Source: a virus. From it: 60,906 nt of DNA. The first letter of the stretch is position 1, and each line of letters begins with the position of its first letter. The DNA is taken from positions 1 to 60,906 of IMG/VR virus record IMGVR_UViG_3300036766_000064. One strand, 5' to 3'. A program made the translations under genes and the position numbers. The notes under the pieces were generated by a model. The model had not been told where the DNA came from and ran no database searches. It was given only the letters and a program-made list of their open reading frames with translations. This document shows, one piece after another, positions 1,788 through 53,398 of this stretch.

Positions 1788-4700
1788 CGCGCCAATCCTT
1801 CTGTCAACCTGTTTTTCTGTGCATCCAGCGCGTCCAGTAGCCCGCGCTTCGTGTCTGTGGAATAAGTACGGTTTGCTTCGATCAAACGCTCTTTCTCGTT
1901 GATCTTGCCGAGCGCACGCTTGACCTGTTCGGTACGATGGTATTGCACGATCTTATCGCCTTCGCTTTCCCTGATACCAGTTGCTTTCTCCCTGTCCCCA
2001 ACCTTCAAGGCTGCATGGTAATCGGCGTAGGCTTCCTCGATCACCTTGGCTTGGTCGTAGAATTGCGTGACATACCGGCTTGAGTTTGTTGGCAGGGTTT
2101 CAACAAAGTTTCCGGCAAGGAACACGTCTTTCAGCTTCATGGCTGGTTTGTCCGGCTTGCCGGCCATCGGGCGCATACCGTAGTCCAATGCGGTCATTGC
2201 CGAGGATCCAACCCATCCGAAATAGGCCCGTATCATGAAATCGATCTGTACCGGGGAAAGTTGGTCGCTCACATCCAGCATGGCGAGTAATTGCGCTGGC
2301 AGCGAAGTACGGCCACCGATACGTTCATCCTTGGACAATCGTTCCATGCCCTGCGTCTCGATATCGCGTCCGGTAAAACTATCCTTGTTGGCGTAGAGGT
2401 CAATAAGAGGTTTGACGATTTGCGGGACCGGATTCATGGAAAGGTTGTTGGAAATAATGCCGCCAAGCGATTTTGCAAACCGCTTGCCTGGATCACGTTC
2501 GTCTGAGGTAAAGGCTTCCAACACGCGCTCTGCAATGCTGGCAACCGCCCCTATTTCAAAGGGCTTGGGAATACGGAACGCCACGCCCCCAACCTTGAAC
2601 CACCAGTACGAATCCCTGTCCCATTCCTCGCGTTTTTTCCAATCGTCGTCGTCGTGATTCCAGAGGAACAGGGCGAGCGATGCGAGGGTGACGGCGCCCA
2701 CAACATAGGCCATCCGCTTTGGATCGTTCTGCGCCGCGCGGCCTAGTTTGTAGAGGCCCTGCAGCCTTGCGTTCATGAAGGGTACGGTTTGCGTCAAGAA
2801 ACGAATCGCCGCCCACTGACCGCCCATCGAGAAGTCCAGCATATCCCGAGCCTGATACGAGGCTTCCAGGTGGTCCATTCCACGTTCTCGGAGTTGCATG
2901 TAGAGGGCAACCCGATTGGCGTTCTCTGAGCGATCCCCCTGCTCCTGGTAGTAGTCCCATGCCTTTTGCAGCATGGCGACAACTTTGTGCTGCTTGTCGA
3001 GGATGGTGTTTTCGTGGACCCCGGATTCAATCAAGCGTTTGACGTGTTCCGCCCGGTTTCCTTCAAGCATGGTTCCAAAGCGAATGATTCCACCGCCGGC
3101 CATCGCCTGGGCTCGCACTTCGCTTTCGTGTGAGGTCGCTTTCCAGCCAGTTGCAATGTTCTTGATTGGGTTGTAACCGATATCGCTTTGCGCAATAGCG
3201 GCCACCGAATCCCGGATGATGTTGCGAATACGAAAGGCCGGGTTGACCGTAACCCCTGTCGTGAGCCACCGCTTGAAGGTTGCCAGAGCTTTCATGGCCG
3301 ACCCGCCAAAGCCAGAGAATTCCATCGACGTGATAGCGTCAAGCAGGAATGGGTCGTTGACTTCATAGAAATGCTGCTTGCCATCGACCAGGACCGCGAC
3401 AGAGCCTTTAACCTTCTCCGGGATCTCCGTTGCCACCCCAAGCTTCGCCGCGGCTTCGAGAGAGGCCCGAGCCGCTTGATTGCGCATCGATGCAGAAAGC
3501 AGGTGCGACCAGTTCTGCAGGGTATTTCCGAGCAAGTCGTGTAACCCCTCAGACCCCCCTTTGAGTTTCTTGAAGGCGTATTGATTGACCAGCCCCGAGG
3601 AGATTGAGGGACCGCCTACGCCATCCTCCATGACACGATAGAACGGGACGTAAAAATCCTTCTCCCAAATCTTCCTTGATTCCCGGTCAATGAGACCGGT
3701 CTGTTCGGCAATGTCGAGCACGCTCTTGGCGTAGCCATCGAATTGCACTTTGGTCTTGAAATACTGCGCCTGTCGGCTCGTGCCATCCGGCATTTTGCCG
3801 AGGTTCAATTCTTTGAGCGCGGAAATGTCGTCGTCGGTGAACAGGTTTTCCTTGCCAGCCAATTTGAGTTGAGCAGCACGGTTACCGGCGATCCATGCAA
3901 AGAAACGGTCATGCTCGCCTTGTAGGGTTTGGAGCAGGCCCAGGACCCCGCCATCCTTGTTTTCGATGTTGAGAGCGCCGCTGTCGAGCTTGAGCTTACC
4001 GTAAAGCATCATGGCTTCCAGCCCGCCATCGGTTGCTTTGGTGAGCCTGGCGAGCATGTATTCCCGGTGCCCGAGTTCTTTGATCGGATCAAACTGATCG
4101 ACCAGCCCTTGCCGGAATATCTTGCCGAAATTCGTACGAAGCTCTCTGGCACGTTCTCCGAGAGTTTTTTCTTCGATGATAACGCCAGCCTTTTTCAGCG
4201 CTGCCTGGACTTCTGGCGATTCGGATTCCGCCCACTTCGGCATCGTGACTTTGGTAGCGGGTGGCGTCCCCTCTGCGGCTTCGTCAGCCCGTGAGTTGTT
4301 CAACAATCCACCGGAAAAGTTTATTTGTGTTGGCATTTCAACCGAAAGTAGTTGCTGTACCGGCGCGTTAAGAAGCCGATCTGTGATGCGAAGAATTTCA
4401 GACAATGTTGTATCTGCGCTTACTGGTAATCCAAGAAACTTCCTAATCGCCGATACAAATCGCGTCCACAAGTTGCCGCCTTGATACGGGATACTTTCAA
4501 GATATTCCTGCATGGAGCGATTCGTAAGTCCCCATGAAACTACTTCACCCAAGTCGCGCAGCGAGTTATGTCCCTGTGCAACGATGCGTTCTATACGGTT
4601 ATCCAATTCACCAACCTTCTTACCGGAAATTCGTTGGTTAAAGTGATTCTGGATAGCTTTATGTACGTCTTCTAAATCTGCAATATCTTTATGCAGTGCA

Positions 4701-41769: not shown

Positions 41770-41937
41770 GGCATCCTCCGTTGAAATTCATGCCCGGTAG
41801 TGCATCGGGCGCGATCTTCGAGCACCCTTGCCCTGAGAAAACAGGTCAGGCGTCGCACATGAGCCGTTTGCGCGGCTCGACCGAATTGTCCGCAGCGAAT
41901 CAGTCTGGCGAAAGTCGCCGCGGTCCTGCAGGATGGG

Positions 41938-42009
41938 AAGCGCCTGGTGGGATCGAACCACCGACCTCCAGCTTATGAGACTGGCGAGCTGCCCCTGCTC
42001 CAAGGCGCA
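41938..42009 (-). tRNA. tRNA with anticodon CAT (Met-type or Ile2)
   Basis: A minus-strand cloverleaf. Acceptor TGCGCCT/AGGCGCT has six pairs with a mismatch at the outermost pair, then T8. The D stem is GAGC/GCTC, the anticodon stem CCAGT/GCTGG with loop CTCATAA, the variable loop AGGTC, and the T stem GGTGG/CCACC with TTCGATC. CCA is not encoded. It lacks the three G-C pairs of initiator tRNA, so it is an elongator Met tRNA or an Ile tRNA modified at C34. It lies between the HNH-like and endolysin genes. The 168 bases to the endolysin start show no other gene. Confidence 0.88.
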
Positions 42010-42023
42010 CCAAATCAAAGAAT

Positions 42024-49011: not shown

Positions 49012-49406
49012 GATGCCTCCCGCAATTTGCACTCGCCGCGCTTGATCGCATCCAAATGATCGTAACAGGCATTACCGTGACCGGTGGCTTTGGCGCCCAT
49101 CACAACATCATTCCCACACCCAGGCCAAACACAGGACAATTTTGGAGGTTCCACCGGATCAACCTCTAACTCATCATTCCATTGTTCAGCCCGTAACCAA
49201 GTTGCCGGGTGCGGTATGTAATTTCCCCCATCCTCATAGTTGAAATGTCTGAGGTGCGCCGGCATCGACGCAAGAATTTTCTGGTGTTCGGACGCCGGGA
49301 TTTTTGACCATGCTTTCATAGCGTCGATTTTCTTTACCCTCCGCGGATAAATTTTCCACCACGCCCCAAAGGAATTATCCATATTTCCTTTTAATTTATT
49401 TGACAT
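49008..49406 (-). CDS. Replication O/DnaT-like helicase loader fragment (132 aa)
   Basis: A protein of 132 residues. FGAWWKIYPRRVKKIDAMKAWSKI (13-36), then YIPHPATWLRAEQWNDEL (63-80) is the motif found at the C-terminus of phage replication O and DnaT-like proteins, which recruit the host replicative helicase. A C-terminal Cys/His part (CVWPGCGN, HGNACYDHL) may bind zinc. The usual N-terminal winged-helix origin-binding part is missing here; it might be supplied by the genes nearby. Directly upstream lies the structured gap 49407-49785. Confidence 0.7.
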   Translation of the reverse strand: MSNKLKGNMDNSFGAWWKIYPRRVKKIDAMKAWSKIPASEHQKILASMPAHLRHFNYEDGGNYIPHPATWLRAEQWNDELEVDPVEPPKLSCVWPGCGNDVVMGAKATGHGNACYDHLDAIKRGECKLREAS

Positions 49407-49429
49407 TTGCTATGCTTTTCAAGTTATGC

Positions 49430-49780
49430 CTTGAGCGGTGGGCGCACCTAGCCATCCCGACTAGGATACGCCTTCAGCCATGCCCTTGATGGAGCCTGAC
49501 ACCCGGAAGCCTTTTCGTCTCAGGCGCTTCCTTCGCCACCTTTTCCGGTATCTCAGACTATCCCACAGTACCGGCTATCCCGTATCCCTGCCGCTGAGTC
49601 CGCGACAAATACGCGGCTGTTTCCGTTTCGCCAATAGAAAAAGCCCTAGGGAGGCGGGCGGACTGGATACAGTTATGAGCAACTGTGCGAGAGACTTCCC
49701 CGCTTCCGGCCCGCTTTCCTAGGGCTTCTATTCTCATGGCTGTATCCAAACAGCACTTACCATTTTCCCCCTTTTTTAAC
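49430..49780 (+). ncRNA. Candidate large structured RNA (or replication origin) with H-type pseudoknot
   Basis: The only gene-free stretch over 300 bases. Complementary pairs in order: TCAAG/CTTGA; GGCG..CCTAG/CTAGG..CGCC (49441-49472); GCCTGA/TCAGGC alternating with GGAAGC/GCTTCC; CCGGTA/TACCGG; CCGCG/CGCGG. Then comes a long stem, 49633-49659 with 49709-49732 (AATAG, AAGCCCTAGG, GCGGGC and partners, 21 bp). Its loop bases 49664-49679 pair with 49733-49748 (16 bp, two of them G-U on the plus strand only). The two stems abut with no gap, as in a coaxial pseudoknot. TTGACA at 49400-49405 could be a -35; a T-run follows at about 49772. The G-U pairs favour a plus-strand transcript. Alternative: iteron origin. 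Confidence 0.5.
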
Positions 49781-49785
49781 CATTG

Positions 49786-50118
49786 TCAAGCCCTTTCCCA
49801 AACTCGACCCGGCGAACAATGACGATTCGGTGAATTACGCCACCCCACGAATCGAATAATCCCGAGTTTCGCGGCCTTCATGAACACGGGTCCGAAAGCC
49901 TTGGGATTGTCTGGCTGGATCAACCCGTACTCTCTCGACGCAGCGACAAGCTCCTCGGCGATAAATGGGGCACTGTGGTGCATCGCGTAGAGCCGAACGT
50001 ACTCGACGGCTACCCCGGTCCAGCCAGGTGTATCGCGCTCGGTTTTAGCCTGTACGCGGGCTATACCGAGGTCGCGTTCTACGATGGCATCGAAGTTCAA
50101 GGTGGCTTGTTCGCTCAT
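49786..50118 (-). CDS. Hypothetical early protein, winged-helix-like (110 aa)
   Basis: A protein of 110 residues. The segment WTGVAVEYVRLYAMHHSAPFIAEELVAASREYGLIQPDNPKAFGPVFMKAAKLGIIRFVGW reads as a small winged helix (start helix, recognition helix GPVFMKAAKLG, wing). Proteins of this kind occur next to phage replication genes and may bind the origin. One-base overlap with the repressor-like gene (TAATG). Confidence 0.6.
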   Translation of the reverse strand: MSEQATLNFDAIVERDLGIARVQAKTERDTPGWTGVAVEYVRLYAMHHSAPFIAEELVAASREYGLIQPDNPKAFGPVFMKAAKLGIIRFVGWRNSPNRHCSPGRVWERA

Positions 50119-51805: not shown

Positions 51806-53398
51806 ATGAGCAAAATTGTTCGCACACCATCAAAGGTACTCGGTGGTATAACTGCTGCCGAGCAAGTGCTGCTAAAAGCGCATTCCGCGAAATGGATTGA
51901 CAACGCCATATCAACGGCGCCTGTCGTTCCCAATAGATTGACGGAGGCTATTCAATCTCTATACAAAGCGGTCGGACTGAACCGCCCGCGCGTTGTAATT
52001 GTAGCGAGTCCGTTGGTAATGGCATTTGCCGGAGGATTCGCTGCGGCAATCTGGTGGGCCAGAAAGAACGGTGGGAAATTGAATACGTACGACGCAACGC
52101 GCGACGCAACGTACGCCGCAACGGACGACGCAACGTACGCCGCAACGTACGCCGCAACGCGCGACGCAACGTACGCCGCAACGCACGTCGCAACGGACGA
52201 CGCAACGCGCGTTGCAACGCACGCCGCAACGGACGACGCAACGCGCGACGCAACGCACGCCGCAACGCACGTCGCAACGCGCGTTGCAACGGACGACGCA
52301 ACGCGCGACGCAACGCGCGACGCAACGGACGACGCAACGCGCGACGCAACGCGCGACGCAACGCACGTCGCAACGCGCGACGCAACGTACGCCGCAACGT
52401 ACGACGCAACGCACGTCGCAACGCGCGCCGCAACGTACGCCGCAACGGACGACGCAACGCACGACGCAACGTACGACGCAACGCACGTCGCAACGCGCGT
52501 TGCAACGGACGACGCAACGCGCGACGCAACGCGCGACGCAACGGACGACGCAACGCGCGACGCAACGGACGACGCAACGCGCGTTGCAACGCACGCCGCA
52601 ACGGACGAATACATTTTTTCTTTAATCGCCAAACAACTCGGGGCGGAATTTGGTGTTTCTCCTGCATTTATGCTTCAGTGCGCGCAATCATGGTATCGCA
52701 TGTATCAAGGGGGGAATATGTGGTCAGCGTGGGACTCGTATATCACAGCATTCCGTGATGTGCTTGGCCTAGTATTACCACAACACGAGAAATACAAAGC
52801 GTGGGAGGCATGTTCGGTCGAGGGTGGGTTCCGAATCATGCACGAGGAGTTTTGTATCGTGTGTGATCGCCCCGAGATACTGTTGAAAGACGATCAGAAC
52901 AGGCCACACTCTGCGGTCGGGCCATCGCACCGCTGGCGGGATGGATGGTCACTGTATTATTTTCACGGCGTCAAGGTTCCTGAGTTGATAATCGAACATC
53001 CAGAACAGATTACGATTGTCATGATCGAAACCGAATCGAACGCCGAGGTCCGTCGCGTGATGATGAAGCGTTACGGGTATGAGCGGTACATGGCCGATTG
53101 TGGGGCAAAGGTGATCGAGGAATGTCCTGCCGACTATTCAGCCGTCGGTTTGCGCACGGCGCGTTTGCTCTACAAGGAAGTGAAGGACGACGAACCGATC
53201 TGCTACGTCGATATGCTGAATTCGACGCCAGAGCCTGATGGTTCGGTCAAGCGTTATATGATCCGTGTCGATCCGAATGCGTATGGCGGCGCAGCGTCAA
53301 AATCGCTACTGGCTGGCATGGCGTCAACGTGGCGCGATGGGAAGGGTGGTATGCTGTTCGAGCGCCCGCAGGACTATCAGCCCGTGATCGAGACTTAG
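51806..53398 (+). CDS. DUF6745 protein with 43 tetrapeptide repeats (530 aa)
   Basis: A protein of 530 residues. Residues 1-94 are helical with a hydrophobic part VVIVASPLVMAFAGGFAAAIWW. Residues 95-266 are 43 consecutive units X-(D/A/V)-A-T with X = R, Y, D or H. The rest (about 270-530) is the DUF6745 domain: PHSAVGPSHRWRDGWSLYYFHGVKVPELIIEHPEQ, SNAEVRRVMMKRYG, NSTPEPDGSVKRYMIRV. In bacterial relatives a helical repeat region also precedes this domain. Function unknown; repeats may form a rod or an interaction surface. Starts one base after the partner gene's stop. Confidence 0.8.
   Translation: MSKIVRTPSKVLGGITAAEQVLLKAHSAKWIDNAISTAPVVPNRLTEAIQSLYKAVGLNRPRVVIVASPLVMAFAGGFAAAIWWARKNGGKLNTYDATRDATYAATDDATYAATYAATRDATYAATHVATDDATRVATHAATDDATRDATHAATHVATRVATDDATRDATRDATDDATRDATRDATHVATRDATYAATYDATHVATRAATYAATDDATHDATYDATHVATRVATDDATRDATRDATDDATRDATDDATRVATHAATDEYIFSLIAKQLGAEFGVSPAFMLQCAQSWYRMYQGGNMWSAWDSYITAFRDVLGLVLPQHEKYKAWEACSVEGGFRIMHEEFCIVCDRPEILLKDDQNRPHSAVGPSHRWRDGWSLYYFHGVKVPELIIEHPEQITIVMIETESNAEVRRVMMKRYGYERYMADCGAKVIEECPADYSAVGLRTARLLYKEVKDDEPICYVDMLNSTPEPDGSVKRYMIRVDPNAYGGAASKSLLAGMASTWRDGKGGMLFERPQDYQPVIET
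52088..52603 (+). repeat. 43 tandem 12-base repeats
   Basis: Units of form NRC-GNY-GCA-ACG: the second half GCAACG is constant and only the first two codons vary (CGC, TAC, GAC or CAC, then GAC, GCC, GTC or GTT). R-V units always use GTT and H-V units always GTC. A seven-unit block (52268-52351) recurs exactly at 52484-52567. With no stop possible in most frames, five other frames are also open; these are shadows. Confidence 0.95.

What the first reader, a model, noticed from the sequence alone, without database searches (positions are those of the whole stretch)
49430..49780. A 350-base structured element with an H-type pseudoknot, in a gap between replication genes
The only large gene-free stretch is full of complementary segments. 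At its right side a stem of 21 bp (49633-49659 with 49709-49732) has loop bases 49664-49679 that pair with 49733-49748. That second stem is 16 bp long, with two G-U pairs possible only in plus-strand RNA. The stems abut without a spacer. Upstream there are at least four more hairpins and a perfect TTGACA at 49400. A T-run follows. I recognise no known RNA class (not tRNA, tmRNA, group I intron or the known giant phage RNAs). It lies in antisense orientation to the minus-strand operon, so it may regulate the O-like gene, bind a defence protein, or mark an origin.
Basis: partly seen in the sequence, partly recalled or inferred. Interest (0 to 1): 0.85.

Follow-up and report, generated by a model that had tools for sequence, protein, structure and literature searches.

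The report
Phage RNA with self-matching loop
The gap holds a gene for a large folded RNA on the minus strand, a longer form of a catalogued but functionally unexplained RNA family (RF02932) that many bacteriophages carry beside their DNA-replication genes; one of its loops repeats a sequence lying just past its 3' end, and the two copies change together, which hints that the RNA recognises its own DNA.

Summary
The structure is real, but it lies on the other strand and is part of something larger. Minus-strand 49,615-49,501 is a clear hit to Rfam RF02932 (Betaproteobacteria-1, 86.5 bits, cut-off 49.4). In 13 relatives the pseudoknot pairs in 90/91 cells, with compensatory changes at 4 of 7 positions. 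Rfam's three stems gain two pseudoknot helices (98% and 80% paired) and two downstream hairpins. Of 40 viral records tested, 31 carry the RNA, one copy each. In 27 of 53 sampled loci the gene before it encodes a Toprim_3 primase. Stand-alone promoter-plus-RNA copies occur in 39/299 Burkholderiaceae-family genomes. The oddest feature is a loop word (X1) repeated just 3' of the RNA (X2): it varies between phages, yet X1 and X2 change together. I propose that X1 anneals to the template strand at X2, forming an R-loop that primes or opens replication, as in ColE1 RNA II (confidence 0.38). A trans-acting sRNA with two identical binding sites is the main rival. No transcript or function was measured.

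The parts
49762..49789 (-). sigma70-like promoter (TTGACA, 16 nt, GAAAAT), 10 of 12 consensus positions
   Evidence: relatives have the same placement, e.g. L027 and L241 TTGACA-N17-TATAAT
49733..49748 (-). 5' arm of the H-type pseudoknot helix (PK0)
49709..49732 (-). 5' arm of the long terminator-like stem of the 5' domain
49664..49679 (-). 3' arm of PK0, in the loop of the long stem
49633..49659 (-). 3' arm of the long stem, overlapping the U-run
49501..49615 (-). RF02932 (Betaproteobacteria-1) domain: P1, P2, P3 plus the pseudoknot helices PK1 and PK2 and the P3a/P3 H-type pseudoknot
49523..49540 (-). conserved core GGUGGCGAAGGAAGCGCC (P3a/P3)
   Evidence: the invariance of GGUGGCGAAG..AGCGCC among relatives is imposed by the search pattern; it is also in Rfam's consensus
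49478..49496 (-). P4 loop: GGCUCC followed by X1 (AUCAAGGGCAUGG)
49441..49472 (-). P5 hairpin (GGCGUAUCCUAG ... CUAGGUGCGCC)
49424..49440 (-). CACC followed by X2 (GCUCAAGGCAUAA), imperfect direct repeat of X1
49383..49423 (-). A+T- and purine-rich tail between X2 and the next gene
   Evidence: relatives; window sequence

Best explanation
Minus-strand 49,765-49,424 encodes one structured, non-coding phage RNA of about 340 nt: a promoter-proximal 5' pseudoknot domain followed by a full-length RF02932 domain. Shown: strand, family membership, pseudoknot covariation, and matched drift of loop word X1 with the flanking word X2 in relatives. Inferred: X1, displayed in the P4 loop, anneals to the template DNA strand at X2 just behind the polymerase and holds an RNA-DNA hybrid open at the A+T- and purine-rich tract that follows. 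That R-loop then serves as primer or strand-opening step for phage DNA replication, whose helicase-primase genes often lie beside it. It would work like ColE1 RNA II; X1=X2 would make it specific to its own replicon.
For: RF02932 hit on the minus strand. Covariation: 91.6% of cells paired vs 70.2% shuffled, score 0.560 vs 0.181; 5' pseudoknot 90/91 cells. X1:X2 is a run of parallel, non-complementary covarying columns in an APC-corrected scan; X1=X2 identity 68% vs 39% swapped (maximum of 500 swaps 44%), and 219 matched co-changes against 85 two-sided unmatched and 80 + 94 one-sided changes in close pairs; no excess of antisense partners within fetched loci (1 vs about 4 expected). One copy per record in all 31 viral records that have it. 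Toprim_3 in 27/53 upstream genes; helicase, primase, RNA in Acidovorax phage AP1. The flank 3' of X2 is A+T-rich and purine-rich. GC-skew minimum closer to the RNA than chance in 24 genomes (KS p 0.005).
Against: Stand-alone promoter-plus-RNA copies in Burkholderiaceae-family genomes (39/299), some with 2-4 copies, among neighbours that do not look phage- or replication-like, are hard to square with a phage origin. GC-skew minima lie mostly 0-4 kb upstream of the RNA, often near the start of the helicase-primase operon, so they do not localise an origin to the RNA. Several genomes show no relation. In the window X1 and X2 match only as TCAAGG(G)CAT with a one-base gap. The window also encodes a replication-initiation-like protein. 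No transcript or hybrid was observed.
Confidence: 0.38

Rival explanations
1. A trans-acting small RNA with two copies of one recognition word (X1 in the P4 loop, X2 in the 3' tail) that pair with, or are bound by, the same partner (a target mRNA, an antisense RNA or a protein). Phages and bacterial islands carry it as a portable gene.
For: Own promoter in many copies; terminator-like signal within 200 nt in 8/37 copies with a 5' U-run and 0/48 without; Rfam types the family as sRNA; portable promoter-plus-RNA unit with a sharp left edge near -195 and unrelated flanks in bacterial genomes.
Against: X drifts quickly between close relatives while X1 and X2 stay matched, which a conserved host target would not favour; about half of the sampled phage copies sit in the 3' flank of a primase gene, and copies without the 5' U-run show no terminator.
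Confidence: 0.32
2. A regulatory leader or processive antiterminator for the early operon, like put RNA or EAR: the 5' pseudoknot with its terminator-like stem is an attenuator and the RF02932 domain modifies RNA polymerase.
For: Terminator-like stem plus U-run with a pseudoknot partner upstream; position inside early operons.
Against: The main domain lies after, not before, the terminator-like stem; one copy per genome; X1=X2 is unexplained; downstream genes are diverse.
Confidence: 0.15
3. A guide RNA for DNA recombination, like IS110 bridge RNA, in which X1 is the guide and X2 the DNA target.
For: X1 is identical to adjacent DNA; one bacterial relic (L378) looks like a deletion fusing X1 to X2; two bacterial copies diverge exactly at GGCTC(C) before X1.
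Against: No shared recombinase or transposase in the neighbourhoods scanned; those two copies share an upstream flank and may be one event; short direct repeats can delete by slippage.
Confidence: 0.08

Closest known systems
Rfam RF02932, Betaproteobacteria-1 RNA
   Same: P1-P2-P3 and the core GGUGGCGAAG..AGCGCC; the window scores 86.5 bits against a cut-off of 49.4.
   Different: Rfam models 120 nt. Here the RNA also has a 5' H-type pseudoknot domain, two pseudoknot helices, P4, P5 and the X1/X2 repeat, and in the sampled collections it is mainly a phage RNA.
ColE1 RNA II (replication primer)
   Same: Promoter-driven structured non-coding RNA; proposed contact of an RNA loop with the template strand just downstream; self-specific loops.
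   Different: No sequence homology shown; persistent hybrid, RNase H processing and an antisense regulator were not tested; phage replication genes are present.
IS110 bridge RNA
   Same: A loop sequence that equals adjacent DNA of the same element (recalled, not tested).
   Different: No DEDD recombinase among the neighbours' Pfam hits.
GOLLD, ROOL and OLE large RNAs
   Same: Large structured RNAs of phages or bacteria with unknown or partly known roles.
   Different: No Rfam match to those families in the window or 16 relatives; this RNA is clearly smaller (sizes from general knowledge).
HK022 put / EAR antitermination RNAs
   Same: Structured RNA in an early or long operon.
   Different: Single copy, terminator-like stem upstream of the main domain, no Rfam match to such families.

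Membership tests
RF02932 Betaproteobacteria-1 | score above the family's gathering threshold over the whole model | tested here: met
   86.5 vs 49.4 bits, model 1-120
RF02932 Betaproteobacteria-1 | the three consensus stems, with covariation | tested here: met
   P1, P2 and P3 covary in 86 relatives
RF02932 Betaproteobacteria-1 | found in Betaproteobacteria | tested here: inconclusive
   39/299 Burkholderiaceae-family genomes, 5/398 in the phylum sample, a Paracidovorax phage; the window's host is unknown
ColE1 RNA II-like replication primer | structured promoter-driven RNA ending at an origin | tested here: inconclusive
   promoter-like site; GC-skew support is weak and offset upstream
ColE1 RNA II-like replication primer | persistent RNA-DNA hybrid cut by RNase H to give a primer | not testable with these tools
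   needs an experiment
ColE1 RNA II-like replication primer | no replicon-encoded initiator (PMC5043065) | tested here: not met
   49,382-49,008 matches phage replication-initiation and primosomal families; phages with the RNA encode helicase and primase. So it is not filed as a member, only as a possible analogue.
IS110 bridge RNA | adjacent DEDD recombinase gene | tested here: not met
   none among the Pfam hits shown for neighbours (one search lists only the 25 commonest of 100 families)
GOLLD / ROOL / OLE | match to the Rfam models | tested here: not met
put / EAR antiterminators | reduces downstream termination | not testable with these tools
   reporter assay needed

The most novel reading that the evidence does not exclude
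A phage replicon uses a structured RNA whose displayed loop is an internal copy of its own origin DNA, so that the RNA finds its origin by base pairing, and the matched pair drifts rapidly to stay specific to self.
Probability: 0.25. Interest if true: 0.9.

Novelty: new variant of a known kind. Interest (0 to 1): 0.62.

Why it matters
RF02932 is catalogued without a function. Here it becomes a widespread phage RNA with a fuller architecture, a frequent address beside helicase-primase genes, and a testable signature (X1 and X2 change together). If the R-loop reading holds, it would extend RNA-primed origins from plasmids to many phages. If the sRNA reading holds, it is a large phage-borne regulator with two matched recognition sites.

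Tried and rejected
Plus-strand RNA: rejected on the Rfam strand, the promoter and homologue G-U pairs, although the window's own pseudoknot, taken alone, pairs better on the plus strand (15 vs 9.5). tRNA or tRNA-like upstream element: only 1 of 87 loci has tRNAs near by. A third segment complementary to X1/X2: no excess within loci. blastn with the window element against phages: no match; with concatenated relatives: 2 records. Plasmids: no match. The alignment-free swap test did not recover PK1 (z -0.1), probably because its sequence windows were crude and the helix is short; the column-based count did (98.4%). Empty-site search in Burkholderiaceae relatives showed mosaic flanks and no clean empty site. 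Literature: no paper in the held library names RF02932 or 'Betaproteobacteria-1 RNA'; the paper I recall as the family's source is not held.

Full report
Observation. The 21-bp stem (7+8+6) and the 16-column pseudoknot helix are real. On the minus strand the latter is 9 and 5 Watson-Crick pairs around two A.C mismatches.

Strand and class. Rfam finds RF02932, Betaproteobacteria-1 (an sRNA family), at 49,615-49,501 on the minus strand, 86.5 bits against a cut-off of 49.4. The RNA is therefore sense to the early operon, between an unknown small gene (50,118-49,786) and a gene resembling phage replication-initiation or primosomal proteins (49,382-49,008).

Relatives. The first, looser pattern also catches chance matches; of 40 viral records taken from the scans and searched with the Rfam model, 31 match, with one copy each. 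After dropping two chance matches and redundancy, 87 sequences remained, of which 86 were aligned. In annotated records it lies in the gap after helicase and primase in Acidovorax phage AP1 (11,821-12,115) and under small hypothetical ORFs in MW202545.1. Of 53 upstream genes scanned, 27 carry Toprim_3.

Structure. An APC-corrected covariation scan, given no structure, ranks P3, P1, PK1, PK2, P3a, P2 and P4 pairs at the top. With these as the named structure, 91.6% of cells pair against 70.2% in shuffles and 34-57% when slid; covariation score 0.560 against 0.181. PK1 pairs in 98.4% and PK2 in 79.5% of cells. Because the structure was read from the same alignment, part of that excess is expected. 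The 5' domain, present in about 35-40 of 87, was tested apart: in 13 relatives the pseudoknot pairs in 90/91 cells (19-48 when slid), with 4 of 7 positions fully compensated, and the stem in 115/117. Close relatives L027, L117 and L249 carry GTCGTGT/ACACGAC, GTCGTTC/GAACGAC and GTCGATC/GATCGAC. P5 pairs better with G-U than with A-C allowed (8.24 vs 5.97), again giving the sense strand.

The X1/X2 repeat. A word in the P4 loop reappears just 3' of P5. Shared words of 8 or more occur in 30/87 loci against about 3 when loci are swapped. The covariation scan shows it as parallel columns 204-210 with 322-328 that are not complementary. Identity is 68% against 39% swapped; among close relatives there are 219 matched co-changes, 85 two-sided unmatched, and 80 and 94 one-sided changes (pairs share history, so these counts are not independent events). 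X has no excess of antisense partners nearby. In the window the match is imperfect (ATCAAGGGCATGG vs GCTCAAGGCATAA).

Context tests. 3' of X2 the DNA of relatives is A+T-rich by about 10-17 points for some 80 bases and purine-rich for some 60. A terminator-like signal follows within 200 nt in 8/37 copies with a 5' U-run and 0/48 without, so there appear to be two forms: a discrete RNA gene and a 3' flank of primase mRNA. Sense-oriented GC-skew minima lie nearer the RNA than chance in 24 genomes (12 within 20% of the half-genome; KS p 0.005, 0.006 after a crude gene-orientation correction), but mostly 0-4 kb upstream, often near the start of the helicase-primase operon, so this does not localise an origin to the RNA (contigs treated as circular).

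Bacterial copies. 39/299 Burkholderiaceae-family genomes have matches, 5/398 of a phylum sample. There the unit runs from about -195 to +165-190 (relative to the core GGTGG) with unrelated flanks and ordinary accessory neighbours; a few copies end at GGCTC(C) or fuse X1 to X2. These copies speak against a phage-only origin function.

Mechanism. Rapid drift with X1 and X2 kept matched suggests self-recognition by base pairing. The simplest such contact is the X1 loop with the template strand at X2, as in ColE1 RNA II (general description of ColE1 initiation in PMC5043065; the loop-template detail is from my own knowledge). I hold this at 0.38, with a two-site sRNA close behind at 0.32. No experiment exists here for either.

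Noticed in passing
window 51806-53398 (+): A 530-aa ORF is largely made of short degenerate repeats (AATRDAT/HAATDDAT type); ARAGORN's tRNA-Thr call at 52238-52327 (-) falls inside it and is probably false.
   Followed up: no
window 41934-42010 (-): A tRNA-Met gene (CAT anticodon), also found by Rfam.
   Followed up: no
window 49540-49531 (-): The conserved core GGUGGCGAAG resembles, from memory, a conserved stretch of 16S rRNA (...ACCGGUGGCGAAGG...); possibly chance for a 10-mer, not tested.
   Followed up: no
L345, L354, L378 (bacterial copies): Bacterial copies of the RNA that end at GGCTC(C) just before X1 or fuse X1 to X2, as if deletions or junctions form there.
   Followed up: partly
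G042:C28, G185:C82, G247:C8, G289:C1, G321:C4, G210:C10, G249:C21, G127:C2, G076:C17: Bacterial contigs with two or more copies of the RNA, roughly 3-100 kb apart, carry them in the same orientation.
   Followed up: no
L381 / L354: Genes with HEPN_Swt1, HHH_6 and SLFN_AlbA_2 domains flank a bacterial copy, some of them defence-like.
   Followed up: no
L300 (MW202545.1) 3832-4289: Two annotated hypothetical proteins overlap the RNA and may be spurious.
   Followed up: partly
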